Positions 14,142 to 63,184 of a DNA stretch of 64,000 nt are shown here, one piece after another (positions within the stretch are counted from its first letter, which is position 1; each line of letters starts with the position of its first letter). Made by a program: the position numbers and the translations under genes. The notes under the pieces are model-generated. The model was given only the letters and a program-made list of their open reading frames with translations. It was not told the origin of the DNA and searched no databases. Source of the DNA: Shewanella oneidensis MR-1 (GTDB lineage Bacteria; Pseudomonadota; Gammaproteobacteria; Enterobacterales; Shewanellaceae). The stretch covers positions 4,573,029-4,637,028 of the forward strand of contig NC_004347.2 in the NCBI RefSeq assembly GCF_000146165.2. Direction: 5' to 3'.

Positions 14142-14202
14142 CTTGATGCCCTGTGATTGATGTTTGTTCGCACTTCCATCTGATCACACTTCAAGGTGCA
14201 AG
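14135..14202 (+). ncRNA. RNA-OUT-like antisense hairpin of IS10-like copy A
   Basis: Perfect 12-bp inverted repeat CTTGCACCTTGA / TCAAGGTGCAAG enclosing a second stem (ATCACA/TGTGAT type) and an AC-rich loop, opposite the transposase start. Position and layout match IS10 RNA-OUT, which blocks transposase translation by pairing with the mRNA leader. Transcription is inferred by analogy. Confidence 0.55.
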
Positions 14203-14251
14203 TTCACTCTAATTTAATGATTTATCTGAAAATCATCAGGGGATTCTTCAG

Positions 14252-34725: not shown

Positions 34726-34729
34726 AGCC

Positions 34730-35908
34730 TTACCTCAAACTGTCTTTGAGTTTTTTCAAATCGTAGTAACGGGTGCGAATATCGTCACGCAATACGGCGG
34801 CGCGTCTATCCCTTAAACGCTCAAGGGAGGCGAGCAGTACATGCAATGGTGGGCCACTGGCGGTCACTTTGGCTAAATGTTGTTGTTCCATGCTGACCGA
34901 AGGCTCAGCAATATATTTAGTCACTAATTCATTGTGATGTTGAATCGCAGTTTGCCCATGTAATTCACAGACTTCGATAAACAGCTTGAGGTTTTCTTGA
35001 TACCAGTCCTGATGAATACAGCCCTTGGCTTGCAAAAAGTCATCCATCAAATTAGGGCGGCGCATGCATTCCCGCAGGATTTGTTGATCCTCCGGCATCA
35101 TGTATAAAAACTTATCCACCAGCATTTGCGAATAAGAAGCTTCGTTGGCAAAACATAAACCTAGGGTTAAATCGATAACGTTAATACCAGCAAAGTCACC
35201 CGCATTAGCGCCACGATACACCACAGAACCGACCCGATAAGGCTTGTAATAAGGACGAACACAGTAGAAGAAACGATCGGTATCTAAGCGATTGAATAAC
35301 TGTTGGTTTGACTCAATCACATCCTGTAGCGCTTGTTTAGTCACCCGCAGTAAATCATGGCTAATGGGGTGAGAAATCCCTAAGGGTTGAATTTTTAATA
35401 GCGCATCACTTGCACGCTTATAGGCCAAAATGCCTTTTGTGTTGTAATCCACAAACAGCTTTTCATCGGGCAAATCGGTAAAACGTTTGTAGATACCATT
35501 ATGGGCGCGGTTATGGGTGGTTAAATGGGCGGTAGCAAAGCGCGGTGTGACTCCAATCGAGGCGCCGATATGCATCGCCAGCGCCGAAGCCTCGAGGAGT
35601 GGAGAGGTGGTTTCCCGCGTTGGCTCGGTAATTTCGTGGCGGCGGCAGGCGGCCATATACAGGCCAACATTGCCTAGTAAATCAAAAGCACTATCAAACC
35701 CTTCATCGGTATTGCCTTCATCGAGCAGCGCTTTGACAAGCTCGCGCCCTTCACTTTCCAATGTGTGTTTAAGCTCAGTACCAACCTCTTGCACATTAGC
35801 ACGGTCTGTCTGCTGGTAATAAAGCTGTTCAAGCTGCGAGTTGAGTTCCACAAAGCGACTGCGGATCCACTCATCGAAGGCTTCAGTATTATAGGTGGCA
35901 GGTTTCAC
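34730..35908 (-). CDS. PrnB-like (DUF1864) heme enzyme of the indoleamine dioxygenase superfamily
   Basis: A 392-residue soluble protein. From memory of PrnB it shares the segments TPRFATAHLTTHNR...TDLPDEKLF (about 121-152) and RPYYKPYRVGSVVYRGA (218-234). His317 in CELHG would match the proximal heme His of PrnB (APHLK). PrnB rearranges chlorotryptophan in pyrrolnitrile synthesis and is structurally related to indoleamine 2,3-dioxygenase. The neighbouring kynureninase-like gene, 4 bases away, fits a tryptophan or indole cleavage route. Substrate not known. Confidence 0.72.
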   Translation of the reverse strand: MKPATYNTEAFDEWIRSRFVELNSQLEQLYYQQTDRANVQEVGTELKHTLESEGRELVKALLDEGNTDEGFDSAFDLLGNVGLYMAACRRHEITEPTRETTSPLLEASALAMHIGASIGVTPRFATAHLTTHNRAHNGIYKRFTDLPDEKLFVDYNTKGILAYKRASDALLKIQPLGISHPISHDLLRVTKQALQDVIESNQQLFNRLDTDRFFYCVRPYYKPYRVGSVVYRGANAGDFAGINVIDLTLGLCFANEASYSQMLVDKFLYMMPEDQQILRECMRRPNLMDDFLQAKGCIHQDWYQENLKLFIEVCELHGQTAIQHHNELVTKYIAEPSVSMEQQHLAKVTASGPPLHVLLASLERLRDRRAAVLRDDIRTRYYDLKKLKDSLR

Positions 35909-47859: not shown

Positions 47860-48024
47860 ATGAAACCAATTACACGCTGGATTAGCTTAAGTTTGCTACT
47901 GCTTGCAGCATTAAGCGCTTACGCCTATGGCAGCGCCACAAGCGCCGTGACATTTATCATCTTAGGCATGCTGTTGGAAGGAACATTTTGGATTGGATTA
48001 CTCGGTAAGCGAAAAACGAAATAA
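47860..48024 (+). CDS. Small two-helix membrane protein
   Basis: A 54-residue frame, MKPITRWISLSLLLLAALSA then YAYGSATSAVTFIILGMLLE and a basic end GKRKTK. CGGAG lies 6 bases before the ATG. Two hydrophobic helices, positive C-terminus inside. Codon use and ribosome-binding site support it as a real gene; no family recognised. Confidence 0.6.
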   Translation: MKPITRWISLSLLLLAALSAYAYGSATSAVTFIILGMLLEGTFWIGLLGKRKTK

Positions 48025-48062
48025 ACAGTCTCAGTTAATTTGCAGCTAGTGCGTGATTCGCC

Positions 48063-48239
48063 CTAACTATCCCAGTGCGAAATCGGCGCAGGCATAGCAT
48101 GGGCATACCCCTGTTGATAATCGCATCCCAATAAGGTTGCTACATCAATGTGCGTCAAAGTCTCCACACCTTCACAAACAACCTGCATTCCTAATCGCTG
48201 TAAATACTCAACTAAGCTCGTCAACATACGCATTGAATG
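48063..48239 (-). pseudogene. EAL phosphodiesterase, C-terminal part beyond IS10-like copy B
   Basis: Continues the frame of the EAL gene (RMLTSLVEYLQRLGMQVVCE) with the conserved CEGVET motif and the QGYAHA segment, ending WDS. The break lies at the 9-bp duplication CATTGAATG, which encodes HSM on the minus strand and appears on both sides of the element. Confidence 0.88.
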
Positions 48240-48252
48240 CTGTAGGATCCCC

Positions 48253-49467
48253 TCATAATTCATAGCCCCAACAACCATGAGTTAATGAGAGTTGGGCTAG
48301 TTTCTTCGCAGCACAAAGCAAATCATCTGCTGATATGGGGTAGTCATGCCGTCGCCGCAGCAGTTCTTTGCCCATCCTGATTGTTGATAGCACATTCCTT
48401 TTCTTTACCGTGTTGGCTTGGAAGTGCCGCTGTAATTGCTGTGTTTCTCCGTATAATCCTACCCACCAAAATGCCAGTTGTACCAATAATGCTATCAATA
48501 GCAGTATGTCCATCCTCGCCGCATAACGTGTTCTGCTATGACGTAAACCAAAGCCATAAGCGGGGCTTTTTAAATCTCTAAAGGTTTCTTCTATTTGCAT
48601 CCGTTTTTGGTAAATATTAACCAGTTTTTGAGGCGACATGGCTTCTATGGTCAAGTTGGTCACCAGTGCCCAAGGCTCTTTGGCGGTCAGTTCATACGTC
48701 CATTGCGCCGTATGGTGACAGTCTGTTGTCGTACTTCGCTGACCTTTTCTGCCTTTACTTGGAGCCCTGAACAATACCATCTCGCATAACAAGGGTTTCT
48801 TTACCGATAACGCCACTCGCCCAACATGTTTTGCGCGACGACTGGCTTTGGGATAAAGCGCTTTTAGCGAAAATTGGCGACCGAAGGGGTGCAGCCGATA
48901 GACACTTAATCCTCTGACACGACCCAGCCAATACCAACCGAGCTGCTCGACTTTTCGAAACCATGGATTACGGAAGCTCGCGTCAGTGACTATCAGCGGG
49001 GTAATATTGTCAGGTAACACTTTATGGAGTTCATTCAGAAACTGATTATGGGCAGTTTGTGTGCCTTGTAGTACTAACGGAAATGTTCGCTCGTAGAGCG
49101 TGATAGAGCGGCCCTTAATCGCAATAGAGGCGCGTAGTGCAATCAGTTCACGACCTTCACGCATATCAGACCAATCCACCAGTATGGTCGGCATCGTATG
49201 TGCTGTTAGCAGCCACTTTGCATGCCACTGATAAACAGCCAGTCTTTCATGGTGAAGGTGCGGATTGCCCAATAATCTATCCATGCGTTTTATTGAGTGT
49301 TTAGTATGAGTGCTGGTGCCATCAATGTGCCGCCCTAAATGCGTGAGGGTGAGACAATCCGCGTTGATGAGGGCTTTGCAGGCGACTATGAGTGTATTCA
49401 GTCGCTTTTGATGGATTTCTGGACAATGTTGATAGAGAGATTGATGTAAGATAGTTAACACTTGCAC
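48253..49467 (-). CDS. IS10-like transposase, copy B
   Basis: A 404-residue IS4-family DDE transposase clearly related to IS10 (shared VDWSDMRE, LIVTDA, YQKRMQIEETFRDLKSPAYG blocks). It starts at GTG 49467, aligned with the AUG of IS10. One substitution stands out: TDASF here versus TDAGF in copies A, C and IS10, right next to the second catalytic Asp. The frame is open, but activity may be affected. Confidence 0.93.
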   Translation of the reverse strand: MQVLTILHQSLYQHCPEIHQKRLNTLIVACKALINADCLTLTHLGRHIDGTSTHTKHSIKRMDRLLGNPHLHHERLAVYQWHAKWLLTAHTMPTILVDWSDMREGRELIALRASIAIKGRSITLYERTFPLVLQGTQTAHNQFLNELHKVLPDNITPLIVTDASFRNPWFRKVEQLGWYWLGRVRGLSVYRLHPFGRQFSLKALYPKASRRAKHVGRVALSVKKPLLCEMVLFRAPSKGRKGQRSTTTDCHHTAQWTYELTAKEPWALVTNLTIEAMSPQKLVNIYQKRMQIEETFRDLKSPAYGFGLRHSRTRYAARMDILLLIALLVQLAFWWVGLYGETQQLQRHFQANTVKKRNVLSTIRMGKELLRRRHDYPISADDLLCAAKKLAQLSLTHGCWGYEL

Positions 49468-49528
49468 CTTGATGCCCTGTGATTGATGTTTGTTCGCACT
49501 TCCATCTGATCACACTTCAAGGTGCAAG
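49461..49528 (+). ncRNA. RNA-OUT-like antisense hairpin of copy B
   Basis: The same 68-base hairpin as in copies A and C, on the strand opposite the transposase; it covers the GTG start. By analogy to IS10 RNA-OUT it would repress translation. Confidence 0.55.
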
Positions 49529-49577
49529 TTCACTCTAATTTAATGATTTATCTGAAAATCATCAGGGGATTCTTCAG

Positions 49578-50150
49578 CATTGAATGTGAAGAGCGACAAG
49601 CTTGCAGCAAAAGGGAACGGTCTAACTTGATGACATCATAGGGCAATACCATCATACGTAAGAAATTACATTCTTGGGTGCCAAAATCATCCAGTACGAT
49701 GCTGGCTCCTCGTGCCCGTAACATTTCAATCAACTCATGCTGTTTATCATCTAATAAAGTGTGTTCTAACACTTCAAACCAAATGTTGATGCACAGCACT
49801 TTTGCTTGAAGCAACAGCATTTGTAATAAATTTTGATAAGTCACACTGTATGGCATGGGATTTAAATTAATGGACAGTATGCCAACGCCTTGATCGGCTA
49901 ATCGAGGTAAGTCTTTGATAATCGACCTCAACATCCATATATCAATGTGCAAAGAAGCATTTTTATCTAACAATAAAAAATCAATACCTGTATATGCATG
50001 ACGCTTGGCATCCCAACGGCGTGCGAGTGCTTCATATCCTATAACGGTTTTATCAACCCCGATAATAGGCTGATAAAAAGGCATAACTACATCAGACATA
50101 ATGCAGGTTGCAATATCTTCACTCACTTTTTTACGCTTAACTGACAGCAT
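49578..50150 (-). pseudogene. EAL-domain cyclic di-GMP phosphodiesterase, N-terminal part
   Basis: 191 residues from ATG 50150: MLSVKRKKVS, then the EAL motif as YEALARR, the segment NLNPMPYS, and catalytic DDFG (LDDFGTQECNF), Lys of IKLDRSLL. No receiver or GGDEF domain precedes it. It is cut by IS10-like copy B after HSM; rejoined with the fragment at 48063-48239 it gives about 250 residues, a full EAL domain. Position next to a fimbrial operon and a BvgAS-like pair suggests it lowered cyclic di-GMP to control the fimbriae. Confidence 0.88.
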
Positions 50151-50358
50151 AGATACCTACAGAATATTAATATATCTGATTTATTTTAACTAAATTGGCA
50201 CTCTCTTCTATCAGATAAATCCTAAAAACCACTGTTATTTATTATAGGACTATTCCTATTAACGCATAAGAATCATCCATATATGATATTGAAAAAATCA
50301 AACATTACCCCACTGCAACATCAACTTAGAAAATGAAATATAAGGTAACTCAATAATA

Positions 50359-51091
50359 ATGCGATTATATTTAGCGCTGTTTGGTATTATTTTTTATAGT
50401 TCTCAAGTTTATGCTGCGGCAGAAATAAGCATAGGCACCTTATTTGACTATATGCCTAGCAACAAAACCACTTATTTGAAAAAAATAATGAATATGGGCG
50501 ATTCGACTGCATTTATTAAAATATCGATTAACGAAATAAAATATGATGAAAATGGCCAACCCTATGAAGTGCCAGAACAAGAGGCAGAGAACCGTGCCTT
50601 GATAGCAAGCCCGTCTCGCTTAATTATTCCCGCCAAGGGAGTACAAGCAACGAGATTGTTATTCTTAGATAAAAAAGACACAGAACGTTACTTTAGAGTT
50701 CGCTTTATACCAGTACAGCAAAAAGACAATGATGGCTTTGATGAGCAAAAAACAGAACAAAAAACTGAACAAATTCGTGAAGAACTCTCCGCGGGAATAC
50801 AAATACTAACAGGTTATGGGGCATTTTTATTTATCACCCCAGACAACCCTAAATACTCGACTGAAATAACGGAAGACACAAATAGCGCAGAAATAAAAAA
50901 CAATGGCAATACGACTATTATTTTAGATTTTTTTGAATCATGTAACAAAAAAAAACAAAGAGTGTTCCACTGCGACCAAATTGCACATCTTACCCGGTTC
51001 AAAAAAACAGCTGGTAAAAAATAGTAACGAAAGCTATCACTTTCAATTGATTGAAGGTGATAAAACCAAAAGCATAGTTATTGGTAACTAA
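50359..51091 (+). pseudogene. Alpha-fimbrial (CS1/CFA-I type) periplasmic chaperone, frameshifted
   Basis: The open frame runs 50359-51024 (221 residues): signal peptide ending VYAAAE, then a chaperone-like Ig domain (AEISIGTLFDYMPSNK, RLIIPAKGVQATRLLFLDK, ERYFRVRFIPV). It terminates early after an A7 run at 51001-51007. With six A the frame would continue KKQLVKNSNESYHFQLIEG to a TAA at 51089, 243 residues, with a proper last strand. Hence a +1 slip most likely inactivated it, unless slippage corrects it. First gene of the fimbrial operon; the pilin follows. Confidence 0.8.
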
Positions 51092-51112
51092 TGCATCCTA
51101 AAGGAGACTGTA

Positions 51113-51264
51113 ATGAAAATATGGAAAGCGGCCCCAATAACCTTATTAGTGGCCATGAACTCATTTGCGGCTGAAAAGATTGAACATCAAGTCACTGTGA
51201 TTGCACAAATTCCGTCAGAGAACTTTTTTGTGCAACCAACAGGCAATGATAACTGGATCAACAG
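51113..51264 (+). pseudogene. CS1/CFA-I-type major pilin, N-terminal part
   Basis: AAAGGAG precedes the ATG. Signal peptide MKIWKAAPITLLVAMNSFAA, then the mature start EKIEHQVTVIAQIPSENFFV, typical of CooA/CfaB-type pilins (alternating strands after a Glu-Lys start). It reaches DNWIN and is interrupted by an IS1595-family element at the duplication ATCAACAG. The remaining pilin lies at 53652-53996 in the same native frame. Confidence 0.85.
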
Positions 51265-51305
51265 AAGGGCTATCCATTTAGCGCCACCAGTGTCAATATG
51301 TAGTA

Positions 51306-52226
51306 ATGAAAACTTCATCGTATTTATTAAAAGCTGGCGTCGATTACCCTACAAATTGGGACGAATTTGTTGATTGGTTTCATGATGAACAATCTTGCAC
51401 TAGCTACCTTTACGCACTTCGTTGGCCAAACGGATTCATTTGCCCAAGCTGTTCGAGCCATCAATCACCTTATCAGTTAAGTAATGGCAAGTTAAAATGT
51501 CATGCTTGCCGTTTTCAGTGTTCAGTAACATCAAGTACACTTTTTGACAAAACAAGAACCCCCATGAAAAGTTGGTTTGCAGCTGTCTGGTTTATTACAA
51601 ATCAAAAGAATGGGGTCAGCGCTCTTGGAGTCCAAAGGCTATTAGGTCTTGGGAGTTATCAAACTGCTTGGTCTTTAATGCACAAGTTAAGATATGCCAT
51701 GGTTGACCCTGAAAGAGATAAACTGTCCGGCATCGTAGAGGTTGACGAAACATTAATAGGTGGGGTCATTCCAAAATCATCTATTAAAAATCAACAGGGT
51801 AAGCGTAAAGCTATAGTTTTGGTGGCTGTTGAGCTGCTATCACCCTCTGGATTTGGGCGGATACGTTTAAGGCAAGTAGAAAGTGCAACTAAAGAACATA
51901 TCCATCAATTCATTCAAGATGTAATAGAGCCTGGTAGCACAATTTGTAGTGATGGTTCTCAAGCATACAAGCAAATAGACAAAAAAGGATATAAGCATAA
52001 TCGGATGGTGCATTTAGGTTCATCTGTACCTGCACATGAAACAATGGCTGGGGTGCATCGAGTCTCATCATTATGTAAAAGATGGCTTTTAGGTACGTAT
52101 CAAGGTGCGGTAAAGGCTAAGCAACTTGATTATTATTTAGATGAATTTACATTTCGCTTCAACAGAAGAAAGTCAGATTCTCGGGGATTATTATTCTACA
52201 GGTTGCTTGAGCAAGCAGTGCGCTGA
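51306..52226 (+). pseudogene. IS1595-family transposase, interrupted near its C-terminus
   Basis: The frame has an N-terminal zinc-binding region (CPSC...CHAC), then the ISXO2-like transposase core with VEVDETLIGG, ICSDGSQAY and MVHLGSS, and FTFRFNRRKS near the end. It runs into the IS10-like element at 52223; its native end resumes after the duplicated AGCAGTGCG at 53561 and stops at TAA 53607-53609, giving 318 residues. Only the last dozen residues are displaced, so residual activity is possible. Confidence 0.88.
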
Positions 52227-52271
52227 AGAATCCCCTGATGATTTTCAGATAAATCATTAAATTAGAGTGAA

Positions 52272-52339
52272 CTTGCACCTTGAAGTGTGATCAGATGGAA
52301 GTGCGAACAAACATCAATCACAGGGCATCAAGGTGCAAG
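52272..52339 (-). ncRNA. RNA-OUT-like antisense hairpin of copy C
   Basis: Perfect arms CTTGCACCTTGA (52272-52283) and TCAAGGTGCAAG (52328-52339) with an inner TGTGAT/ATCACA stem. A GATC lies in the loop half, as in the IS10 pIN region, where Dam methylation controls transcription. The GTG start of the transposase sits inside the right arm. Confidence 0.6.
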
Positions 52340-53547
52340 TGTTAACTATCTTACATCAATCTCTCTATCAACATTGTCCAGAAATCCATCAAAAGCGACT
52401 GAATACACTCATGGTCGCCTGCAAAGCCCTCATCAACGCGGATTGTCTCACCCTCACGCATTTAGGGCGGCACATTGATGGCACCAGCACTCATACTAAA
52501 CACTCAATAAAACGCATGGATAGATTATTGGGCAACCCGCACCTTCACCATGAAAGACTGGCTGTTTATCAGTGGCATGCAAAGTGGCTGCTAACAGCAC
52601 ATACGATGCCGACCATACTGGTGGATTGGTCTGATATGCGTGAAGGTCGTGAACTGATTGCACTACGCGCCTCTATTGCGATTAAGGGCCGCTCTATCAC
52701 GCTCTACGAGCGAACATTTCCGTTAGTACTACAAGGCACACAAACTGCCCATAATCAGTTTCTGAATGAACTCCATAAAGTGTTACCTGACAATATTACC
52801 CCGCTGATAGTCACTGACGCGGGCTTCCGTAATCCATGGTTTCGAAAAGTCGAGCAGCTCGGTTGGTATTGGCTGGGTCGTGTCAGAGGATTAAGTGTCT
52901 ATCGGCTGCACCCCTTCGGTCGCCAATTTTCGCTAAAAGCGCTTTATCCCAAAGCCAGTCGTCGCGCAAAACATGTTGGGCGAGTGGCGTTATCGGTAAA
53001 GAAACCCTTGTTATGCGAGATGGTATTGTTCAGGGCTCCAAGTAAAGGCAGAAAAGGTCAGCGAAGTACGACAACAGACTGTCACCATACGGCGCAATGG
53101 ACGTATGAACTGACCGCCAAAGAGCCTTGGGCACTGGTGACCAACTTGACCATAGAAGCCATGTCGCCTCAAAAACTGGTTAATATTTACCAAAAACGGA
53201 TGCAAATAGAAGAAACCTTTAGAGATTTAAAAAGCCCCGCTTATGGCTTTGGTTTACGTCATAGCAGAACACGTTATGCGGCGAGGATGGACATACTGCT
53301 ATTGATAGCATTATTGGTACAACTGGCATTTTGGTGGGTAGGATTATACGGAGAAACACAGCAATTACAGCGGCACTTCCAAGCCAACACGGTAAAGAAA
53401 AGGAATGTGCTATCAACAATCAGGATGGGCAAAGAACTGCTGCGGCGACGGCATGACTACCCCATATCAGCAGATGATTTGCTTTGTGCTGCGAAGAAAC
53501 TAGCCCAACTCTCATTAACTCATGGTTGTTGGGGCTATGAATTATGA
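52333..53547 (+). CDS. IS10-like transposase, copy C (apparently intact)
   Basis: A 404-residue IS4-family transposase starting at GTG 52333. IS10-like blocks: NTLMVACKALINADC, LVDWSDMREGREL (first catalytic Asp), LIVTDAGFRNPWF (second Asp), and YQKRMQIEETFRDLKSPAYG (catalytic Glu). It lacks the nonsense codon of copy A and the Gly-to-Ser change of copy B, so it is the best candidate for an active source. Confidence 0.95.
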   Translation: MQVLTILHQSLYQHCPEIHQKRLNTLMVACKALINADCLTLTHLGRHIDGTSTHTKHSIKRMDRLLGNPHLHHERLAVYQWHAKWLLTAHTMPTILVDWSDMREGRELIALRASIAIKGRSITLYERTFPLVLQGTQTAHNQFLNELHKVLPDNITPLIVTDAGFRNPWFRKVEQLGWYWLGRVRGLSVYRLHPFGRQFSLKALYPKASRRAKHVGRVALSVKKPLLCEMVLFRAPSKGRKGQRSTTTDCHHTAQWTYELTAKEPWALVTNLTIEAMSPQKLVNIYQKRMQIEETFRDLKSPAYGFGLRHSRTRYAARMDILLLIALLVQLAFWWVGLYGETQQLQRHFQANTVKKRNVLSTIRMGKELLRRRHDYPISADDLLCAAKKLAQLSLTHGCWGYEL

Positions 53548-53651
53548 GGGGATCCTACAGAGCAGTGCGTTCTAAGCCGATAACGTACCAATCAATTAAA
53601 AATCGATAACCACAATATATAGTGGTTGGTCGTGCTAAGTGGATAGCCCTT

Positions 53652-53996
53652 ATCAACAGCCAGCAAAAGTTAGCATATAACGTCCATACAAAAAAGCTAG
53701 ATCAATTAAATAAGCAACTAGAAGTGAAAAGTACCATTGGTGCTATTACGGGTTACTTATCAAACCCAGCCATTATCGCCAGTGGCAATGATAATATTGC
53801 ACTAACAGTTAAAGTGGGCGGTATTGAACTGAAGACGTCTGCGACAGAATTAGTCGATGTCGACAATGCTAAAACAGGTAAAACCCTTGCACTAGAGATC
53901 ATACCAACTGTCCCAGCAAGCGGCTATGTAGCAGGCAACTACCAAGGCATGGTCAATATGATTTTCGAATCGGAAGCGCCAATTAAAAAACCATAG
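53652..53996 (+). pseudogene. CS1/CFA-I-type major pilin, C-terminal part
   Basis: After removing the element and one ATCAACAG, the frame runs from DNWIN directly into SQQKLAYNVHTKK and ends SGYVAGNYQGMVNMIFE then SEAPIKKP. This matches the conserved pilin end (G.Y.G.V..I.). The rebuilt pilin is about 163 residues, the usual length. The break is therefore entirely due to the nested insertion. Confidence 0.88.
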
Positions 53997-54020
53997 AGAT
54001 TTATTAAGTTAAATTTCAAA

Positions 54021-54043
54021 AAAGCTCCCGCGAAGGGAGCTTT
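54021..54043 (+). terminator. Hairpin between pilin and usher genes
   Basis: AAAGCTCCC/GGGAGCTTT with a GCGAA loop, 24 bases after the pilin stop. Such partial terminators give an excess of pilin over usher transcripts in fimbrial operons. Confidence 0.75.
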
Positions 54044-54100
54044 ATTAATTTTCAAGTTAACGACTCATGCTTTTCATTTTTTCGATATGAGGCAACACAC

Positions 54101-56569
54101 TTGTCATCTTTGATCCTGACGATCCTGATCGCAACGCTAATCTTTAGCTCTTGCTCTTTGGCGAGTAATACGTCATCGGACTTGCTAAAGCTGCTAAAGC
54201 AATATCAAGACTTGCCTGATGGATTTTCTGAGCATTTTTTCAATGCCCCATTAACAGTAAGAATCACCATTGATAATAAATTGCTTGGCGAAGGTGAAAT
54301 AGTGTTAGGACTCGATACCAGTGTGCAACTATTAAAACTCATAGACGTGAGCGAAAGCGATCTTGACGAACGTCAGCAACAATTATGGATAGCGCAATTA
54401 AACCAAAAACATAAGTTGGGTTTGTGCCAAAAAGGCTGTCAGGGCGGCATATTAGCGATTGAATATAATTTGGAGAACTCTCAATTATCTATTTTAACGG
54501 CCAATATCGAAAAACAACCATCAAGCTCGCACTACTATGCCTTGCCTGAACAGGGAAGCTACGGCGCGCTATTTCGACGACAACTCAATTGGAGTCAATC
54601 CAATGAGAGCGATTACGCAGGCCGTTATAATTTGCAAGCCCAAGCAAGTATAGGCCAGTGGACCACACTGCTTGAAGGTGAAGTCACTCAAAATAATGAA
54701 GAGACACTCAACTCGACTATTCAACAGTTGTATACAGAACGTCAAAACGAAGGACACTTCTATCGACTCGGGTATTTCTCCCCTTATGCCCAAGGTTTAG
54801 TTCGTCAGCCCATCATTTATAGCGGCAGCTCACAAGCTGTGATGGGCGTGATGCTGGGTGACTCTAATCAGTTATTGGTCGATCAAGCCTATGCCAGTGC
54901 CACACCCATTTATGTCACTCCGAATCGTGCAGGTGTGGTAGAAATCTACCAAAATGGACAATTGATCAACTCGCAACAGATTAACGCGGGCTTACAAGCC
55001 ATTGATACAAAAGTATTACCATCTGGCATATATGAAGTTGAAATTCGTATTCTAGAAGATGGCCAAGTCACTGAACGTCGTCGAGAAATCATTAACAAAC
55101 CCATTCAATGGCAAAACACTGAAGAACCCTTTCGGGTGAACTTGTTTGCTGGAGAAAAGTTACAAGACATAACGAATTGGGATGATGAAAGCAGACGCGG
55201 ACTCAGCACAGGGGTACTCGCAAACTACTTATTAACACCGGCGATCATCCTCGGCGCAGCGGCCCAATTTGTTGATAAAGGTTGGCATTATAGCGTTTCG
55301 GCCGATTGGGACTGGAACCAACAACTGCGCTTTTTTGGTAACTGGGTGATGAATGATCAACAGGGCAGCGATTTTGATTTGCAAGCAGTTTATAGCTACA
55401 GGCAAGGTAGTTTTGTACTCAGCCATCAGCAACAACTCAGCCAATCGCAAAGCAGTGATATTACGAACTCTAATCCCAAAAAGACGAGTGCATCGCTGCA
55501 ACATAACCTAGGGAGAGGTCACTCTGTTTCTGCTTATTTGTCACATCAATCCGAGCAAGGTCAAGGCATTGACTTAGGTTGGCAGTACAGCGGCAAACTC
55601 TGGGGACGCCAAATGAGCTGGAGTTTAAATGCGTTCGATCGTCCCGGCAGCATTAACACTTCAGGCCAGCGCGACCAAGGCGGAGCACTTTATTTCAGTA
55701 TGAACTTAGGCGATCAAAAGCGTCGAATGGGTGGTGGCTTAGGCAGCAGAACTTCACGTTCTGGCGGGCAAGAACAGCATGCCTATGTTGATTACCAACA
55801 GCAACTAGACTGGCGTGGCATTGAAACCATAGGGATGGGACTAAACACGGATAGCTATGGTGTTGGCGCAACCGCCAATAGCCGCTTTAGCAACAATATT
55901 GTTAGCGGGGATGCCTATGCACAATCATCGTCCTATAACAGCGGCATCACAGGAGGTATCAACCTTGATAGTATGGTTGCACTAGGGCAACAGGGTAAAC
56001 TCGGCATCTCAGGCCAAAGCCAAAACCACGATGCGGGCATGATAATCGATGTCATGGCTGATACCCCTGACATCATTTTACAAGCAGAAGATGAGCACGG
56101 TGGCAGTGTCACCTTAAAGCCTGGACGCAACTTAGTGCCAGTGACCGCCTATCGCAGTGGTAGCGTACAACTCGCCATACAGGACTACGATGACACACCT
56201 TCAGTCATCCAACCGAGCGTATTGCATTACCACCTCAATAAGGGAGGCGTCAGTTACCAACAAATCAGAGTCATGAAGACTGTCACAGTGATTGGTCGCT
56301 TAGTAAATCAACAGGGATTGCCGCTTAAAGGCGCGCTCATCGCCAACCATGCGGGGCGCAGCCTGAGTGAGGCCGATGGCTTTTTTGCCGTAGAAATGAG
56401 TGAACGCCACCCGAGCTTGCAAGTGGAGTATCAAGGTGTACAAGAGTGCAACCTTGAACTCGATTTACACCGAGTAAAACGTGAACAGAACCTATTGCTA
56501 GTAGGCAATATCACTTGCAACGCCCAAGCATGGGCACAGCAAACATTAACAGAGAACCTAGCCAAGTGA
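54101..56569 (+). CDS. CS1-type (alpha) fimbrial usher
   Basis: An 822-residue outer-membrane protein starting at TTG 54101, with GAGG at an 8-base distance. Signal peptide ends around CSLAS. The N-terminal domain includes LDERQQQLWIAQLNQKHKLG and a CQKGC disulfide pair; the middle has beta-barrel and plug-like segments with long polar strands, and the end is a carboxy domain (VTVIGRLVNQQGLPLKGALI). Length is close to CooC/CfaC ushers. It is the only intact structural gene of the operon. Its TGA overlaps the GTG of the tip gene. Confidence 0.85.
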   Translation: MSSLILTILIATLIFSSCSLASNTSSDLLKLLKQYQDLPDGFSEHFFNAPLTVRITIDNKLLGEGEIVLGLDTSVQLLKLIDVSESDLDERQQQLWIAQLNQKHKLGLCQKGCQGGILAIEYNLENSQLSILTANIEKQPSSSHYYALPEQGSYGALFRRQLNWSQSNESDYAGRYNLQAQASIGQWTTLLEGEVTQNNEETLNSTIQQLYTERQNEGHFYRLGYFSPYAQGLVRQPIIYSGSSQAVMGVMLGDSNQLLVDQAYASATPIYVTPNRAGVVEIYQNGQLINSQQINAGLQAIDTKVLPSGIYEVEIRILEDGQVTERRREIINKPIQWQNTEEPFRVNLFAGEKLQDITNWDDESRRGLSTGVLANYLLTPAIILGAAAQFVDKGWHYSVSADWDWNQQLRFFGNWVMNDQQGSDFDLQAVYSYRQGSFVLSHQQQLSQSQSSDITNSNPKKTSASLQHNLGRGHSVSAYLSHQSEQGQGIDLGWQYSGKLWGRQMSWSLNAFDRPGSINTSGQRDQGGALYFSMNLGDQKRRMGGGLGSRTSRSGGQEQHAYVDYQQQLDWRGIETIGMGLNTDSYGVGATANSRFSNNIVSGDAYAQSSSYNSGITGGINLDSMVALGQQGKLGISGQSQNHDAGMIIDVMADTPDIILQAEDEHGGSVTLKPGRNLVPVTAYRSGSVQLAIQDYDDTPSVIQPSVLHYHLNKGGVSYQQIRVMKTVTVIGRLVNQQGLPLKGALIANHAGRSLSEADGFFAVEMSERHPSLQVEYQGVQECNLELDLHRVKREQNLLLVGNITCNAQAWAQQTLTENLAK

Positions 56570-56943
56570 ATTATCGTTACGCTTTATATGCCTTGATGGG
56601 ATATCTACTACTCAGCCCATTAACAGAGGCAGCTACCATTCAAGTTACTGCTGAATATAAACCTGCGCCCTATGATATTAATGGCAGTAAGTTTATTAAC
56701 ACGACACCATGTTCAGTAGAATGGCAAGCGGAAGGATTCTGGTGTAACGGCACTGCCTCACTAGAAAAAGAGCAGGCTATAAATATACCAATAAAGATGA
56801 CCTCACGACTCGTCAGCAATGATGATAAATTGGAGCATGCCATTACCTATCAGAAATTTACAGGCGAAAAGACCGTTGAGTTAACTAAAAAAGGTGGAGG
56901 TTTGTTCTGGTCTAATCCCATCGGACACTTAATTTTGAGACAG
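56566..56943 (+). pseudogene. CS1-type fimbrial tip protein, N-terminal part
   Basis: Start GTG 56566 overlaps the usher TGA (GTGA). Signal peptide NYRYALYALMGYLLLSPLTEA, then TIQVTAEYKPAPYDI. The frame enters the IS3-family element after HLILRQ. The remaining protein is encoded from about 58139. In CooD-type proteins the tip subunit initiates fimbria assembly and carries the adhesin. Confidence 0.78.
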
Positions 56944-56969
56944 TATGGTCAATAAATTAAGAGGTCTAT

Positions 56970-57260
56970 ATGAGTCTGAAAAAATCACATAAGAGTTATC
57001 CGCAGGCATTTAAAGATGAAGCCGTCTTGATGGTGCTGGAGCAAGGTTATAGCGTTGCCGATGCGGCAAAGTCTCTTGGAGTTAGCACGAGCCTGCTTTA
57101 CAACTGGAAGGAAAAACACGAAGCCCTGCAACAAGGCATCACCTTAGAAGAGTCTGAGCGTGATGAGTTGAAGCGATTGCGTAGAGAAAACAAAGAATTA
57201 CGCATGGAGAAAGAAATTCTAAAAAAGGCAAGCGCCTTCTTTGCGAGAGAAATGAAGTAA
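56970..57260 (+). CDS. IS3-family OrfA
   Basis: A 96-residue helix-turn-helix protein (YPQAFKDEAVLMVLEQGYSV, SLGVSTSLLYNWKEKH) with a leucine-zipper tail (LKRLRRENKELRMEKEIL). AAGAGG precedes the ATG. The A6G slippery heptamer is at 57221-57227; a -1 shift there fuses it to OrfB without meeting a stop. Confidence 0.92.
   Translation: MSLKKSHKSYPQAFKDEAVLMVLEQGYSVADAAKSLGVSTSLLYNWKEKHEALQQGITLEESERDELKRLRRENKELRMEKEILKKASAFFAREMK
57221..57227 (+). promoter_or_regulatory. Programmed -1 frameshift site of the IS3-family element
   Basis: AAAAAAG near the end of orfA. Shifting -1 here gives an open frame through LKKGKRLLCERNEVRFRFIK into OrfB, the standard way IS3 elements make the OrfAB transposase. 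Confidence 0.75.
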
Positions 57261-57319
57261 GATTTCGTTTCATCAAACTGCAATCTCACCTGTTTCCCAT
57301 AACACTGTTATGTCGAGTA

Positions 57320-58129
57320 ATGAGTGTCAGTAAGTCAGGCTATTACGATTGGCATAAACGCCCTGCAAACGTGATAAGCGTTGAAACACTGAAGCTTTAT
57401 CGCCTTGTTCGACAGCTATTTAAGCAAAGTCGAGGCAGCTTAGGGAATCGTGAAATGGTGAAGAAATTGCGCAAGGAAGGCTACCAGGTTGGTCGCTATC
57501 TCGTTCGTAAAATTATGCACCGCCTTCGACTCAAAGCAACCCAGCGATGTGCTTACAAGGTGACGACACAGCGAAAACACTCAGATGCAGTGGCTGATAA
57601 CCTGTTAAACATGAACTTTAATCCAGTATCGGCTAATCAGGTCTGGGCGGGTGACGTGACCTATTTAAAGACGGGTGAAGGCTGGATGTACTTAGCTGTG
57701 GTGATGGATTTATATTCACGCCGGATTGTGGGATGGCGCATAGACAAACGCATGACCACAGATTTGATATCCAAGGCATTAATAAAAGCCTACAACCTGC
57801 GACAACCAGCGCGAGGGCTGGTATTTCACAGTGACCGAGGCTCGCAATATACCAGTAAACAATTCGGTAGGCTGCTATCGAGCTATGGTATCCGAGCCAG
57901 CATGGGTGATGTGGGTGCGTGTTGGGATAATGCCGTTGTTGAGCGATTCTTTGGTAGCTTGAAACACGATTGGATTTTTAAAGTTGCTCAACCAACAAGG
58001 GAGTTTATGAAGCAAGATGTGACGGCTTACATCAAATATTACAACTTGGAGCGACTTCATTCTGCTAATAACGATCTGTCACCTGTAGAGTTTGAGAATT
58101 CTCAAGTAAAAGTGTCCAGTTTGGGTTGA
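57320..58129 (+). CDS. IS3-family OrfB (transposase catalytic part)
   Basis: 269 residues from ATG 57320, with the frame open further upstream as expected for fusion to OrfA. Integrase-like DDE core: VWAGDVTYLKTGEGW (first Asp), FHSDRGSQYTS (second Asp), and DNAVVERFFGSLKHDW (Glu). Intact. Confidence 0.95.
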   Translation: MSVSKSGYYDWHKRPANVISVETLKLYRLVRQLFKQSRGSLGNREMVKKLRKEGYQVGRYLVRKIMHRLRLKATQRCAYKVTTQRKHSDAVADNLLNMNFNPVSANQVWAGDVTYLKTGEGWMYLAVVMDLYSRRIVGWRIDKRMTTDLISKALIKAYNLRQPARGLVFHSDRGSQYTSKQFGRLLSSYGIRASMGDVGACWDNAVVERFFGSLKHDWIFKVAQPTREFMKQDVTAYIKYYNLERLHSANNDLSPVEFENSQVKVSSLG

Positions 58130-58138
58130 CCAGTACAG

Positions 58139-59012
58139 TTTCTCTCATAGAATGAAGTTTAAATTAACGCAAATTGGCGCAAGTCAAACACCAAATATTA
58201 TAAAAGAAGCTGGCACAAGTGGGACACTTTGGCTAGAAAAAACTGTGCAGGGTGATTGTAGTTTTAGACAACAAACTTGGGCTAGCCCAAGTTTATTTGA
58301 ATATTTCTATGATATAAAGAATGCCAACCAAAAATTAGGGGGGATTTGTTACAACAATATATTTAACACTACATTCACCTCAAAAAATATTACCCTTCAA
58401 AGGATTTATATTGGTTATAAACTGCAACTTCCCGATCCTTTAAAAATGGAAAATGGCACTTATAAGGGCAGCTTAACCTTGAGTCTTGGACGCAATAAAG
58501 ATCTCGATTTTGGTGATGCAACCTATTCTGACTCAAACGTAACGATAGAATTTACCTTAAGGGTCACACATCAACTTAAGGTTGAATTCCCTGCTGGCAG
58601 CAATAAAGTAATCTTGCAACCGCCCAAGGGCTGGGCACCATGGATGAACAGCGGGAAAACACCGCCCAACTTAAAGGCTGAATTGCCGTTTAAGTTTTGG
58701 TTTAGCGCACCATTTGATGTTTCATTGAGTTATTGCCAATATCAAAAAAATGGCCAATGCCAACTCAACAACATTAAAAACAGTCACAAAACAAATATTG
58801 AAATCAGTTATATCAATGGTGAAGGGAAATCATATCCGCTATCAACATCAAAGTACAAGTTTACAAATACAGATGGAACATATATCAATGTTGCAAGAAA
58901 ATTTTTATTTGAAATTAGCAAAACCAACTTAACTGAAATGATGAAATATCCAGGAAGCACTTACCAAGGGGATGTAACGATTATGTTCGAGGCTGAAATT
59001 CCTCCACTTTAA
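58139..59012 (+). pseudogene. CS1-type fimbrial tip protein, C-terminal part
   Basis: From ATG 58152 the frame gives 286 residues, with GTLWLEKTVQGDCSF, the Cys pairs of the tip subunit (CSF...CYNN; CQYQKNGQC), and the pilin-like C-terminus YPGSTYQGDVTIMFEAEIPPL, which serves as the donor strand interface. Removing the IS3 element plus ACAG leaves this half one base out of frame with the N-terminal half, so either another small indel exists or the IS end is placed slightly wrong. Confidence 0.78.
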
Positions 59013-59014
59013 CA

Positions 59015-59653
59015 TTAGAATAAGCCCTGTTGCTGTGCATAATGAAACAACTCACTGTCACTCTTTAAACCGAGTTTTTGCATTGCATTGGTTTTTTGGG
59101 TGCTAATGGTTTTTACACTACGATTTAAATAACTGGCAACTTGAGTCACTGACATGCCATTTGCCAGTAAACGTACCACTTCTATTTCTTTCAGTGAAAG
59201 TTCAACTGGGATGGCATATTGATTAATACCTTGTTCATTTAATAATTCATGGACAGTTTCGCCAATGTAAACAGAACCTAATAATACTTTTTTAACTGTT
59301 TTCTCTAATTCGGCAATAACTGATTTTTTTAATAACAAGCCTTGTATCCCAATCTGTAACAGCGCTTGTAATACACCTAAATTATGTACTTGAGTCAACA
59401 CTATTATGGGTAAGTTTGGATATTTTCGTCTTAGCTGTTTAATCATGGCCATACCATCGACATTGTCATCATTAGGCATACTAAAGTCTGTGATCAATAA
59501 GTCACATTCATGTTGTTCTAATGTACGCCATAATTCGGAAACATTATTTGCTTCAGCAACAATGTCACAACTTGGCTGCATTTCAGCCATCAAACTACGC
59601 ACGCCAGTGAGTATAATAGGGTGATCGTCGGCAAGGATGATCTTAAAAGCCAT
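59015..59653 (-). CDS. BvgA-like NarL/LuxR-family response regulator
   Basis: A 213-residue regulator: receiver with ADDH at 8-11 and Asp56 in LLITDFSMPND, Lys in LLLKKS, and a LuxR-type helix-turn-helix (LSLKEIEVVRLLANGMSVTQVA...VKTISTQK). ATG 59653 with GGGAG upstream is preferred to the TTG two codons earlier. It is divergent from the BvgS-like kinase, 96 bases apart, and adjacent to the fimbrial operon. Resembles BvgA, EvgA or RocA1-type regulators of adhesins. Confidence 0.9.
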   Translation of the reverse strand: MAFKIILADDHPIILTGVRSLMAEMQPSCDIVAEANNVSELWRTLEQHECDLLITDFSMPNDDNVDGMAMIKQLRRKYPNLPIIVLTQVHNLGVLQALLQIGIQGLLLKKSVIAELEKTVKKVLLGSVYIGETVHELLNEQGINQYAIPVELSLKEIEVVRLLANGMSVTQVASYLNRSVKTISTQKTNAMQKLGLKSDSELFHYAQQQGLF

Positions 59654-59749
59654 ATTCAACTCCCGTGATAATGTGAACTTATGGATACCTTATCTATACT
59701 ACTTGGCATCGGTGTTTTTTTCGAGACTTAATCCACTTTGGTCATATAG

Positions 59750-62700
59750 ATGAGTGCAATTCAAAAAATACGTTATCAACTTCTTTGCATCTTGAGTTAC
59801 TTACCCCTACTGTGCATGACTTTTATCACTCATGCTGAACAGCCCAACACCACAACAATTAGCGTAGGCGTACTCGCCAATGGCTGGGGACCTTTTCAGC
59901 AAGTAAATGACCAGATAACAACGGGATTTAGTGTTGAGCTGATACAACTGCTCGCCAAAAATCTTCATTACCAAATTGACTGGAAGATTTATCCCGATTG
60001 GATGAGCCTCTACTCCGCAGGTTGTAATGGGGAGGTCGATGTCTTGCTTGACGCTTTTCGTACCACAGAGCGCACTCAATGTCTCATGTTTAGCCGCTCA
60101 TATTACACCTCACCCACCGTCGTCGTTATTCGTTACGACAGCCGATTTTTTCGCGATGTGAGTGAATTTGGCCAAGCTCGGATCGCCGTTGAAAAAGGAT
60201 TCTCGACTGAGAAATTAGTCAAACTGCATTATCCAACCGTAACAGAAGTAACATTTTCTAATACAGAACAAGCACTTTCCTCGGTCATTGATAAAACGAC
60301 CGATGCCTATATTGGTAATCTTCATGTTGCTAACCAATATATTAGTGCACACCCAGAACTTCTTATCGTTGCCCAAGCCCCCCTGATGATGGAAAACTTA
60401 CATTTAGGGATCACGAAGAACAATAGCCTGCTTGTAACACAACTCGATAACGCCTTAATGGCTCTGAGTGTAGAAGAGCGTAATGCTCTCGAAGTGACTT
60501 GGCTGGGTATGGGCGATCTTCATTTTTTAGGCCACAGTAATTTTCTACTTAGACCCAATGAACGCGAATGGCTAGCAGGTTTACCTTCACTCAGAGTCGG
60601 ATTTGTTGATGATTGGATGCCATTCTCTTCGGTTAACAATAACGGCATCTTAGTAGGCTTAATTGCTGATTATCTTGAGCAATTTAGAGAAAAACTTGGG
60701 TTAGATTATGCGGCACAAAAAACCAGAACCTGGAATGAGATCCAAAGCGCACTCATTAACCATGAGATTGATCTCGCCATTATTCCAACTCGATTGAAAG
60801 CACAATATCCAGACTGGCACATGAGCGAAGTGTTTACGTCTTTCCCTATTGTGATAGCCACTGCTCGCAACAGTCCGCGAATCGCGGGGCTGTCAGAACT
60901 CAACTTTCAACGCGTGGTCATCACAGATAATCTACTGCTGCCAAGCATTAAAAAAGCCTATCCGAATATCGATGTTGTAGTTTCTGCCAATCCCGATGAA
61001 GGTTTGACCTTAGTCGCAAAGGGCAACGCAGCGGCTTATATGGGGAATTTGGCCGTTGTGGCTATGCTCATTGACAACAAATTTATTGATGAATTACGAG
61101 TAGCGGCACCAACACCTTATAAAGATGAACTCGCTGTTGCCATTCGTGAACCTTATTGGCAACTGATCCCATTAATTAACCGTGTTTTCTCCAGTATGAG
61201 TGAGAAAGAAAAGCAGCAAATCCGCAATACTTGGCTAGCTGTAAATTACAGCGAAGGCATCTCTTGGCATACATTGATCACAACACTGCTGCCTATTGCG
61301 ATAGGTTTACTGCTTTTCATTGGCGGCTTAACCATAGCCTATTTAAAACTCAGACAAGAAATTAACAAGCGCCGTATTGTCGAGAATGCCCTCGCTATCG
61401 CCAAGGAAAATGCTGAACTAGCGACTAAAAGAAAAGCAGAATTTCTTGCAGCTATGAGCCATGAGATCCGCACGCCCATGAATGGGCTCGTGGGCATGGC
61501 AGAGCAACTAAGCTTTACCCCCCTAGGTATAGAACAAAAACAAATGGTGCAAATCATTAGTAATGGCGCGGAAGAAATCCTTCAGATCATTAATAATATT
61601 CTCGATTTTTCTAAAATAGACATGGGAAAAATGCGTCTAGAATCGACACCAATACTATTGCGTGAAGTTCTCGATAGTACGCTTAATATGGTCATGAATG
61701 ATTTACGCACTAAAGACTTAAGCCTCTACTTACACGTTGACCAAGGCGTAGCAGCACGGGTCACAGGAGACAGTCTTCGCATAAAGCAGATCCTATTCAA
61801 TTGGGTAAGTAATGCTATTAAATTCACTGAACGCGGGTTTATTGAAGTCTCGGTCAAGCTTGAAGCCGAAGAAGAGGGCCAACAATTACTGCTGATTGGC
61901 GTACAAGATACAGGTATCGGCATGAACGCTGATACTCAAGCGCGAATATTTAATATTTTCGAGCAAGCAGACGTCTCGACGACACGTAGCTATGGTGGTG
62001 CAGGCTTGGGTCTTGCTATCAGCCATACACTCGCTGAAATGATGGGCGGTGACATTATCCTGAATAGCGCTCCTCATTTAGGTACATTTATTGGTTTACG
62101 CATTCGTTTACCTGTAGTTGCTCAAGATGAATTTGATGAACAATTACAAGGGTTACAGGCATATATTGCTATCAGCGATATAAAATTACGTCACACTTTA
62201 TCTTGGCATTTAGCGTCATTAGGCATTGTATTAACTCAGAATAAAGCCAATGCAGACCTGTTGTTTACTGATAATGCTTCGGATGATCGGCAACATATAC
62301 TCTGCACTCACTTTAATGAAGCACTTGGTTATAGGTATCAAAACGATCAATGTTTATTAAATGTAAACCCTCTAACATCGCAAGCGGTAAAGGATGTTTG
62401 TTATATCAATATGGGTTGGATTGATACCATAGTCTCGACACCGCAGAGGGACATTACGCTTAAGGTAAATTGGCCTGAATGTAAAATTTTATTAATTGAA
62501 GATCATCAGCTTAATCAGATATTGGTACAACGACAGCTAAAGCAATTGAGATTAGACTGTGATATTGCCGAACATGGTGTCCAAGCGCTCGACCTCATGC
62601 AACAGACGCATTACGACTTAATATTATGTGATTGCCGCATGCCAGTAATGGATGGCTACACTTTTACCCAACAAGTGAGAGCACAGGAAATAGATGGACA

Positions 62701-63175
62701 ACACGTCCCCATTATTGCTCTAACTGCCAACGTATTAAATGAACAAAAACAACGATGTGCTGCAGTAGAGATGGATGACCTACTGGCAAAACCGCTGCAT
62801 CTAAATGAACTGCATGAAATGCTATTGAAATGGCTCCCACACTCAAAACCTGCACTTATCGATATAAAAATATTAGAGAATGCATTTGGTCGCAGGGAGG
62901 CATTAAGTAAAATGCTATTAATGTTTAAAGATGAACTCGAAAGCTCACTTAAGGATATTCAACTGACAGCTCCTCAACTTGCGGACAATATCCATCGAAC
63001 TGCAGGAACAATTAGTATGCTAGGTCTCACATCAATTGCAGAGCAGGCTTGGCTACTAGAAGAAAAAATCAGACAAGAAGACAGCAACAACGGAGAAGTC
63101 GAATTAACTGAGTTTCGGGCGATAATAATCCAATTGATAAGCGAGCTAAACGCCATAATCCACACAAGTAACTGA
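59750..63175 (+). CDS. BvgS/EvgS/RocS-like hybrid sensor kinase
   Basis: 1141 residues. Signal peptide ending THAEQ, two tandem SBP-bac-3 (Venus flytrap) domains (about 35-260 and 275-500), one membrane helix (about 508-532), HisKA with His571 (AAMSHEIRTPMNG), an ATPase domain (N box NWVSNAIKFTE, G2 GAGLGLAIS), a receiver with phospho-Asp961 (CDCRMPVMDG) and a C-terminal Hpt domain with His1081 (IHRTAGTISMLG). There is no PAS domain between helix and HisKA. Such unorthodox kinases sense small periplasmic solutes; with the regulator and EAL gene the set recalls Roc control of fimbriae. Confidence 0.92.
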   Translation: MSAIQKIRYQLLCILSYLPLLCMTFITHAEQPNTTTISVGVLANGWGPFQQVNDQITTGFSVELIQLLAKNLHYQIDWKIYPDWMSLYSAGCNGEVDVLLDAFRTTERTQCLMFSRSYYTSPTVVVIRYDSRFFRDVSEFGQARIAVEKGFSTEKLVKLHYPTVTEVTFSNTEQALSSVIDKTTDAYIGNLHVANQYISAHPELLIVAQAPLMMENLHLGITKNNSLLVTQLDNALMALSVEERNALEVTWLGMGDLHFLGHSNFLLRPNEREWLAGLPSLRVGFVDDWMPFSSVNNNGILVGLIADYLEQFREKLGLDYAAQKTRTWNEIQSALINHEIDLAIIPTRLKAQYPDWHMSEVFTSFPIVIATARNSPRIAGLSELNFQRVVITDNLLLPSIKKAYPNIDVVVSANPDEGLTLVAKGNAAAYMGNLAVVAMLIDNKFIDELRVAAPTPYKDELAVAIREPYWQLIPLINRVFSSMSEKEKQQIRNTWLAVNYSEGISWHTLITTLLPIAIGLLLFIGGLTIAYLKLRQEINKRRIVENALAIAKENAELATKRKAEFLAAMSHEIRTPMNGLVGMAEQLSFTPLGIEQKQMVQIISNGAEEILQIINNILDFSKIDMGKMRLESTPILLREVLDSTLNMVMNDLRTKDLSLYLHVDQGVAARVTGDSLRIKQILFNWVSNAIKFTERGFIEVSVKLEAEEEGQQLLLIGVQDTGIGMNADTQARIFNIFEQADVSTTRSYGGAGLGLAISHTLAEMMGGDIILNSAPHLGTFIGLRIRLPVVAQDEFDEQLQGLQAYIAISDIKLRHTLSWHLASLGIVLTQNKANADLLFTDNASDDRQHILCTHFNEALGYRYQNDQCLLNVNPLTSQAVKDVCYINMGWIDTIVSTPQRDITLKVNWPECKILLIEDHQLNQILVQRQLKQLRLDCDIAEHGVQALDLMQQTHYDLILCDCRMPVMDGYTFTQQVRAQEIDGQHVPIIALTANVLNEQKQRCAAVEMDDLLAKPLHLNELHEMLLKWLPHSKPALIDIKILENAFGRREALSKMLLMFKDELESSLKDIQLTAPQLADNIHRTAGTISMLGLTSIAEQAWLLEEKIRQEDSNNGEVELTEFRAIIIQLISELNAIIHTSN

Positions 63176-63184
63176 TGAGGTGCA

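What the first reader, a model, noticed from the sequence alone, without database searches (positions are those of the whole stretch)
50151..63175. A CS1/alpha-fimbrial locus dismantled by at least four independent lesions while its regulators stay intact
The sequence shows chaperone (frameshift), pilin (nested IS), tip (IS3) and EAL (IS10-like) all broken, but the 822-residue usher, a BvgA-like regulator and the 1141-residue BvgS-like kinase remain open. Four separate hits in one pathway against intact flanks suggest relaxed or negative selection on this fimbria in this lineage.
Basis: partly seen in the sequence, partly recalled or inferred. Interest (0 to 1): 0.85.

Follow-up and report, generated by a model that had tools for sequence, protein, structure and literature searches.

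The report
IS-broken fimbrial gene cluster in Shewanella
A set of genes for a hair-like attachment fibre, shared with another Shewanella and with Aeromonas, has been knocked out very recently in this strain, mostly by jumping DNA elements that have multiplied in its genome; it is a clear but fairly ordinary case of gene loss.

Summary
Window 48010-63184 is a seven-gene block (EAL, chaperone, CS1 pilin, usher, putative tip, response regulator, tandem-VFT hybrid kinase) in a Shewanella chromosome. EAL, pilin and tip each carry one IS insertion with a perfect target duplication. The chaperone frame breaks at an A9 run, the weakest lesion. Usher, regulator and kinase are open. All seven genes are open in S. 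oncorhynchi. Order and orientation are shared with Aeromonas. The site is empty in the 18 near relatives fetched, and most of the block is exchanged DNA (dS 0.03-0.27 against 1.3-1.6 outside).

The hits belong to a genome-wide IS burst (42 IS3, 18 IS10-like, 13 IS1595 copies). A triple this tight appears somewhere in 26% of random placements. dN/dS shows no relaxation in the broken genes. An unhit kinase and regulator are unremarkable (P 0.11-0.20), and the broken EAL gene is itself a regulator. The nested IS is not a separate hit on the pilin: the same 2387-bp composite sits elsewhere with its own duplication.

Most likely: recent, largely passive IS inactivation of an exchanged, dispensable fimbria. 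Other strains of the species could not be compared.

The parts
48010..63184 (.). whole block, absent from the same site in 18 near relatives fetched
   Evidence: flank alignments
48063..48239 (-). EAL gene, 3' piece (includes one copy of the 9-bp duplication)
48240..49577 (-). IS4-family (IS10-like) element in the EAL gene, duplication CATTGAATG
49578..50150 (-). EAL gene, 5' piece (EAL domain PF00563, positions 13-182 of 236; ORF listed from 49548)
50359..51024 (+). chaperone ORF, frame lost at the A9 run 50947-50955
51113..51264 (+). CS1-type pilin, 5' piece
51265..53651 (+). IS1595-family element, duplication ATCAACAG; composite with the nested IS10-like copy
52223..53560 (+). nested IS4-family (IS10-like) copy, duplication AGCAGTGCG
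53652..53996 (+). CS1-type pilin, 3' piece (PF04449, E 5e-23)
54101..56569 (+). usher (TcfC and CooC_C domains), open
56530..56902 (+). putative tip, 5' piece
56903..58137 (+). IS3-type element, duplication GTT
58138..59012 (+). putative tip, 3' piece
59015..59659 (-). NarL/RcsB-type response regulator, open
59750..63175 (+). hybrid kinase: two periplasmic binding domains, HisKA, HATPase, receiver, Hpt; open

Best explanation
This is a horizontally exchanged alpha (CS1-type) fimbrial locus with its own regulators. It was intact until recently and has been inactivated mostly by transposition during a genome-wide IS burst. An IS10-like copy entered the EAL gene, an IS1595 element (now a composite with an IS10-like copy) the major pilin and an IS3 copy the tip gene; the chaperone frame also broke at an A9 run. 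Without a whole pilin and tip no fibre is expected. The open usher, response regulator and kinase are leftovers not yet hit, or are kept for other targets. Shown: anatomy, target duplications, near-identity of IS copies, the burst, exchange of the block, an open relative. Inferred: that no fibre is made, that the process was largely passive, and the order of events.
For: Perfect target duplications at all four IS copies. The 18 full IS10-like copies differ by at most 3 bases from the nested one, 17 of 18 with duplications. 42 IS3 left ends here against at most 7 in any of 128 other Shewanella genomes. Piece lengths equal the open gene for EAL and pilin and come within 3 bp for the tip. dN/dS similar in broken and unbroken genes. 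Random-placement P 0.26 for such a triple somewhere. dS 0.03-0.27 over most of the block against 1.32-1.57 in three flanking genes. Empty site in 18 of 18 relatives fetched. All seven genes open in S. oncorhynchi.
Against: Three IS events in this very locus would have P 3e-4 had it been named beforehand. All four lesions miss usher, kinase and regulator, P 0.012 after the fact. The same locus also has split genes in one A. salmonicida draft, which could point to favoured loss. Expression was not measured; the chaperone lesion may be leaky or a sequencing slip.
Confidence: 0.75

Rival explanations
1. Loss of this fimbria was favoured, for example to shed a surface antigen or a costly adhesion state in a host-associated lineage, so that several hits in one pathway were selected.
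For: Three IS events in this locus, P 3e-4 if named beforehand. Usher and regulator of the same seven-gene locus are split in A. salmonicida subsp. salmonicida ATCC 33658, a subspecies described as IS-rich with many pseudogenes, including pili and flagella genes (PMC2556355, abstract and passages).
Against: P 0.26 for such a triple anywhere. Once the first hit has broken the fimbria, later hits bring no further gain. dN/dS gives no signal. The A. salmonicida case is one draft genome, and the paper on strain A449 calls its type I pilus operon intact; whether that is this locus was not tested.
Confidence: 0.15
2. The response regulator and kinase are kept under selection as an orphan two-component system with targets elsewhere in the genome.
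For: Both open, dN/dS 0.056 and 0.079-0.124. In P. aeruginosa PA14 the cupD-linked RcsB also controls core-genome genes (PMC3842833, abstract and passages).
Against: Escaping all hits has P 0.115-0.197. dN/dS is not clearly lower than in broken genes (pilin pieces 0 and 0.064, EAL piece 0.118). The block's own EAL regulator is broken.
Confidence: 0.2
3. The chaperone frameshift is not a fixed lesion but a slippage-prone or switching A9 tract, or a sequencing error, so only the three IS hits count.
For: The frame departs exactly at the longest homopolymer of the window. A9/T9 runs are slippage-prone in a large share of bacterial genomes (PMC1088944, abstract and passages).
Against: No reads or transcripts were available. 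The relative has an interrupted run at this place, so the tract is not a conserved switch.
Confidence: 0.4
4. The two nested IS copies arose by independent IS10-like insertions at one hot spot of two IS1595 copies, not by movement of a composite.
For: The one differing base is shared with four other IS10-like copies. Two other copies share one 9-bp target with each other, so the element has target preferences.
Against: Same 9-bp site and same orientation in a 1040-bp element, with different 8-bp duplications outside.
Confidence: 0.12

Closest known systems
Alpha (CS1/CFA-I type) chaperone-usher fimbriae, including Burkholderia cable pili
   Same: Usher with TcfC and CooC_C domains, PF04449 pilin, chaperone related to CfaA and EcpB, gene order chaperone-pilin-usher-tip
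   Different: Four of seven genes of the block broken; curated subfamily models (TcfC, TcfA, CblA) are hit far below their cut-offs; tip matches no Pfam or NCBIfam model
cupD / RcsCB-PvrSR region of P. aeruginosa PA14
   Same: Fimbrial genes beside an RcsB-type regulator, a hybrid kinase and an EAL protein, thought to be acquired together (PMC3842833, abstract and passages)
   Different: PA14 has two kinases, and its EAL protein is a response regulator; here one kinase and a stand-alone EAL domain; fimbria of a different usher class (class recalled, not tested)
Bordetella BvgAS with BvgR
   Same: Tandem-VFT hybrid kinase (BvgS 4q0c aligns over residues 36-497, E 6e-31), NarL-type regulator, stand-alone EAL protein
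   Different: Regulator closer to RcsB models; no PAS domain reported by Pfam at E 0.01; BvgR is described as probably not catalytic (PMC12805831, passages)
IS-driven pseudogenes of Aeromonas salmonicida subsp. salmonicida
   Same: IS expansion, IS within IS, surface structures lost (PMC2556355, abstract and passages)
   Different: There most pseudogenes come from small indels; here three of four lesions are IS insertions

Membership tests
Alpha (CS1-type) fimbrial locus | Usher with TcfC and CooC_C domains | tested here: met
   PF16967 E 2e-29, PF15976 E 4e-32
Alpha (CS1-type) fimbrial locus | PF04449 major pilin | tested here: met
   3' piece E 5e-23 (5' piece alone under the cut-off); open S. 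oncorhynchi copy E 3e-31
Alpha (CS1-type) fimbrial locus | Chaperone related to CfaA/EcpB | tested here: met
   profile of six intact relatives: EcpB 5dfk E 2e-14, CfaA 6k73 E 1e-9
Alpha (CS1-type) fimbrial locus | CooD/CfaE-like tip adhesin | tested here: inconclusive
   no Pfam, NCBIfam or solved-structure match; named by position and by relatives beside other CS1 ushers
Alpha (CS1-type) fimbrial locus | Pili assembled | not testable with these tools
   needs microscopy
BvgAS/EvgAS-type two-component system | Tandem-VFT kinase with HisKA, HATPase, receiver, Hpt | tested here: met
BvgAS/EvgAS-type two-component system | BvgA/EvgA-type regulator | tested here: not met
   best model RcsB 166 bits (cut-off 235); EvgA 74 bits
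BvgAS/EvgAS-type two-component system | PAS domain before the kinase core (feature of BvgS, recalled) | tested here: inconclusive
   no Pfam PAS hit at E 0.01; not searched more sensitively
IS-caused pseudogenes | Complete IS with target duplication inside a gene that is open in a relative | tested here: met
   EAL, pilin, tip
Genes under relaxed selection | Raised dN/dS in the broken genes | tested here: not met
   broken-gene pieces 0-0.181, unbroken genes 0.056-0.151; low power, lesions young, no close outgroup

The most novel reading that the evidence does not exclude
The seven-gene module (stand-alone EAL, alpha-fimbria, RcsB-like regulator, tandem-VFT kinase) is an exchangeable adhesion cassette of aquatic Gammaproteobacteria that is repeatedly and favourably inactivated in IS-burst, host-adapting lineages (here and in A. 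salmonicida subsp. salmonicida), leaving an orphan two-component system whose remaining targets lie elsewhere.
Probability: 0.12. Interest if true: 0.6.

Novelty: new member of a known kind. Interest (0 to 1): 0.33.

Why it matters
It is a snapshot of an operon dying: the IS hits are so young that all target duplications are intact, and an open copy exists in another species. It shows how a cluster of hits that looks like selection can be within reach of chance in a genome with an IS burst. It also records a seven-gene fimbria-plus-signalling block with the same order in Shewanella and Aeromonas, and one IS inside another at the same junction at two sites, best read as a composite that moves as one piece.

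Tried and rejected
Tried without result. Plasmid searches with the IS10-like element and with a 1500-base stretch of contig C2 gave no match, so the strain was not named. Literature: 0 papers for 'Shewanella' plus 'alpha-fimbriae'; of 193 papers with three of four related terms 12 were listed, one of them on Shewanella genomes, and its main text holds no 'usher' or 'chaperone'. Tip profile against solved structures: one irrelevant hit, E 0.25. PF00577 ushers in the own genome: none; that model does not report this usher either, so it is weak evidence that no other system exists.

Rejected. Counting the nested copy as a further hit on the pilin: the 2387-bp composite recurs at C1 about 2.397 Mb with duplication ATATCCAT and one differing base. 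Special protection of kinase and regulator: not significant. Old decay: no further damage seen in the pieces, duplications intact.

Rows left out. One search printed only alignments of 80 bp or more, and only 18 of the 127 genomes with the flanking gene were fetched at the site. One search counted three IS families on C1 (62 events, nested copies merged). One search counts exact left ends, and drafts may collapse repeats. One search scored 3 candidates per genome and was not used for copy numbers. In one search short kinase hits in Pseudomonas loci were taken as non-orthologous; L031 tip (0.80 of the length), L024 chaperone (0.85) and L037 (contig ends) were not looked into and not counted as broken. 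dS of the 173-aa flanking gene was not computable. Of the IS1595 copies, 10 of 11 with both ends found have matching duplications; L074 showed no ends with my motifs and L110 is interrupted. My script's first look for the EAL copy landed on the copy at 12914; the EAL copy is L062 (3 mismatches).

Labels recalled, not from a call: 'IS10-like' (calls give IS4 family), 'IS3' for the element in the tip (calls give rve and HTH domains), and the ABC-transporter nature of the downstream gene.
Full report
WHAT IS THERE. The window lies at C1:4573029-4637028 of a 5.13-Mb, two-contig genome. The closest named relative of the locus is Shewanella oncorhynchi S-1. From 48010 to 63184 it holds a seven-gene block: an EAL-domain gene (minus strand), a chaperone, a CS1-type pilin, a TcfC/CooC-type usher and a putative tip (plus), a NarL-type response regulator (minus), and a hybrid kinase (plus) with two periplasmic binding domains, HisKA, HATPase, receiver and Hpt. 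The kinase's periplasmic half aligns with the BvgS structure 4q0c over residues 36-497. The regulator is closest to the RcsB model, under its cut-off. The chaperone family aligns with EcpB and CfaA. The tip is named by position and relatives only.

LESIONS. Three genes are interrupted by complete IS elements with perfect target duplications: EAL by an IS10-like element (9 bp), pilin by an IS1595-family element (8 bp), tip by an IS3-type element (3 bp). The pieces of EAL and pilin add up exactly to the open genes of S. oncorhynchi; those of the tip to 1245 against 1248 bp. The chaperone ORF leaves its frame at the A9 run 50947-50955, the longest homopolymer of the window, and loses a C-terminal end that holds seven columns invariant in six intact relatives. 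This lesion rests on one assembly. A9 runs are slippage-prone in many bacteria (PMC1088944, abstract and passages), so it may be leaky or a sequencing slip. Usher, regulator and kinase are open. All seven genes are open in S. oncorhynchi.

THE NESTED ELEMENT. The pilin's IS1595 copy carries an IS10-like copy. The same 2387-bp composite, with the same junction and orientation, sits at C1 about 2.397 Mb with a different 8-bp duplication and differs at one base. The simplest reading is that the composite moved as one piece, presumably with transposase from one of the complete IS1595 copies (inference). The differing base is shared with four other IS10-like copies, so two insertions at one hot spot remain possible. 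Either way one event broke the pilin frame.

IS BURST. The genome holds 18 full IS10-like copies (plus one partial), 17 of 18 with duplications and none more than 3 bases from the nested copy. There are 13 IS1595 copies, one of them interrupted by other DNA, and 42 exact IS3 left ends, 35 on C1 and 7 on C2. Among 129 Shewanella genomes including this one, 7 have the exact IS3 end; the next highest count is 7 (drafts may collapse repeats). On C1 the three families make 62 events. Three within 8.66 kb occur only here, and in 26% of 2000 uniform random placements at least one such triple arises. For this locus named beforehand the Poisson probability of three would be 3e-4. Both figures should be kept in view: the locus was picked because it looked broken.

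ORIGIN OF THE BLOCK. A full-length, near-identical usher (96%) is found in 1 of 128 other Shewanella genomes; 13 more give only weak partial matches. The flanking 173-aa gene is found in 127 of 129 genomes. In 18 of 18 of the near relatives fetched at this site the upstream genes lie within about 0.4 kb of the downstream gene, some with a small ORF between, and no piece of the block of 80 bp or more was found. Against S. oncorhynchi, DNA identity steps from 68-88% to 98% near 48.0 kb, dips to 75% in the middle of the tip, and falls to about 80% from 62.34 kb, inside the kinase gene. Synonymous divergence is 1.32-1.57 in three flanking genes; 0.03-0.27 in EAL, chaperone, pilin, usher, regulator and the first three quarters of the kinase; 0.23-0.68 in parts of the tip; 0.92 in the kinase's 3' end. 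So most of the block was exchanged between these lineages well after they parted. Direction and donor are not settled. The same order and orientation is found in Aeromonas in 4 of 4 loci with enough contig; a fifth contig ends after the usher. In one of the four, A. salmonicida subsp. salmonicida ATCC 33658 (draft), usher and regulator are each split into two frames. Of 32 named loci scanned this was the only clearly split one, two others with a short ORF not being looked into.

SELECTION. dN/dS against S. oncorhynchi: EAL piece 0.118; chaperone piece 0.143; pilin pieces 0 and 0.064; usher 0.151; tip pieces 0.152-0.181; regulator 0.056; kinase parts 0.079 and 0.124; three flanking genes 0.021-0.043, where dS is near saturation. 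Broken genes do not stand out within the block. The test has little power, since the lesions are younger than most of the divergence. Weighted by length, four hits miss kinase and regulator with P 0.115 (three hits 0.197), and miss usher, kinase and regulator with P 0.012 (0.035), a split chosen after the fact. The EAL gene is a regulator and is broken, and the usher is structural and open, so the contrast 'structure broken, regulators intact' does not hold.

HOW IT PROBABLY WORKED. By analogy with cupD of P. aeruginosa PA14, where RcsB activates the fimbrial genes and the EAL protein PvrR opposes it (PMC3842833, abstract and passages), the kinase would sense a periplasmic cue, the regulator would switch the fimbria on, and the EAL protein would lower c-di-GMP. 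All of this is inferred. In the window pilin and tip cannot be made whole, so no fibre is expected. No PF00577 usher was found elsewhere in the genome, and a search with this usher found only this one; PF00577 does not report this usher either.

VERDICT. Real, well resolved and ordinary in kind: recent IS inactivation of an exchanged fimbrial locus. Favoured loss is possible but unproven.

Noticed in passing
12914-14251: An IS10-like copy without a matching target duplication (TGCTCGACC / AGTACAGGT); one flank equals the duplication of another copy (L061, C1:1294313-1295650), which suggests a rearrangement between IS copies.
   Followed up: partly
L032 7920-10360 and 11598-12285: In A. salmonicida subsp. 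salmonicida ATCC 33658 the usher (381 + 441 aa) and the regulator (101 + 130 aa) of the same locus are split into two frames; one draft genome.
   Followed up: partly
56652-58437: The tip gene around the IS3 site is only about 75% identical to S. oncorhynchi while its neighbours are 95% or more, as if the adhesin part diversifies.
   Followed up: no
33589-35908: A strong PrnB-family protein (Pfam PF08933, E 1e-209) beside a class V aminotransferase.
   Followed up: no
239-6269: Two ketoacyl synthases and an FAD/halogenase-type oxidoreductase close together, perhaps a fatty-acid- or polyene-like cluster.
   Followed up: no
8778-9980: A further transposase, Mutator family, so the window holds more IS types than the three counted.
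   Followed up: no
L110 (C1:3899000-3902500): Another IS1595 copy is interrupted by about 1.3 kb of other DNA (2341 bp between its ends) and its outer duplications differ by one base.
   Followed up: no
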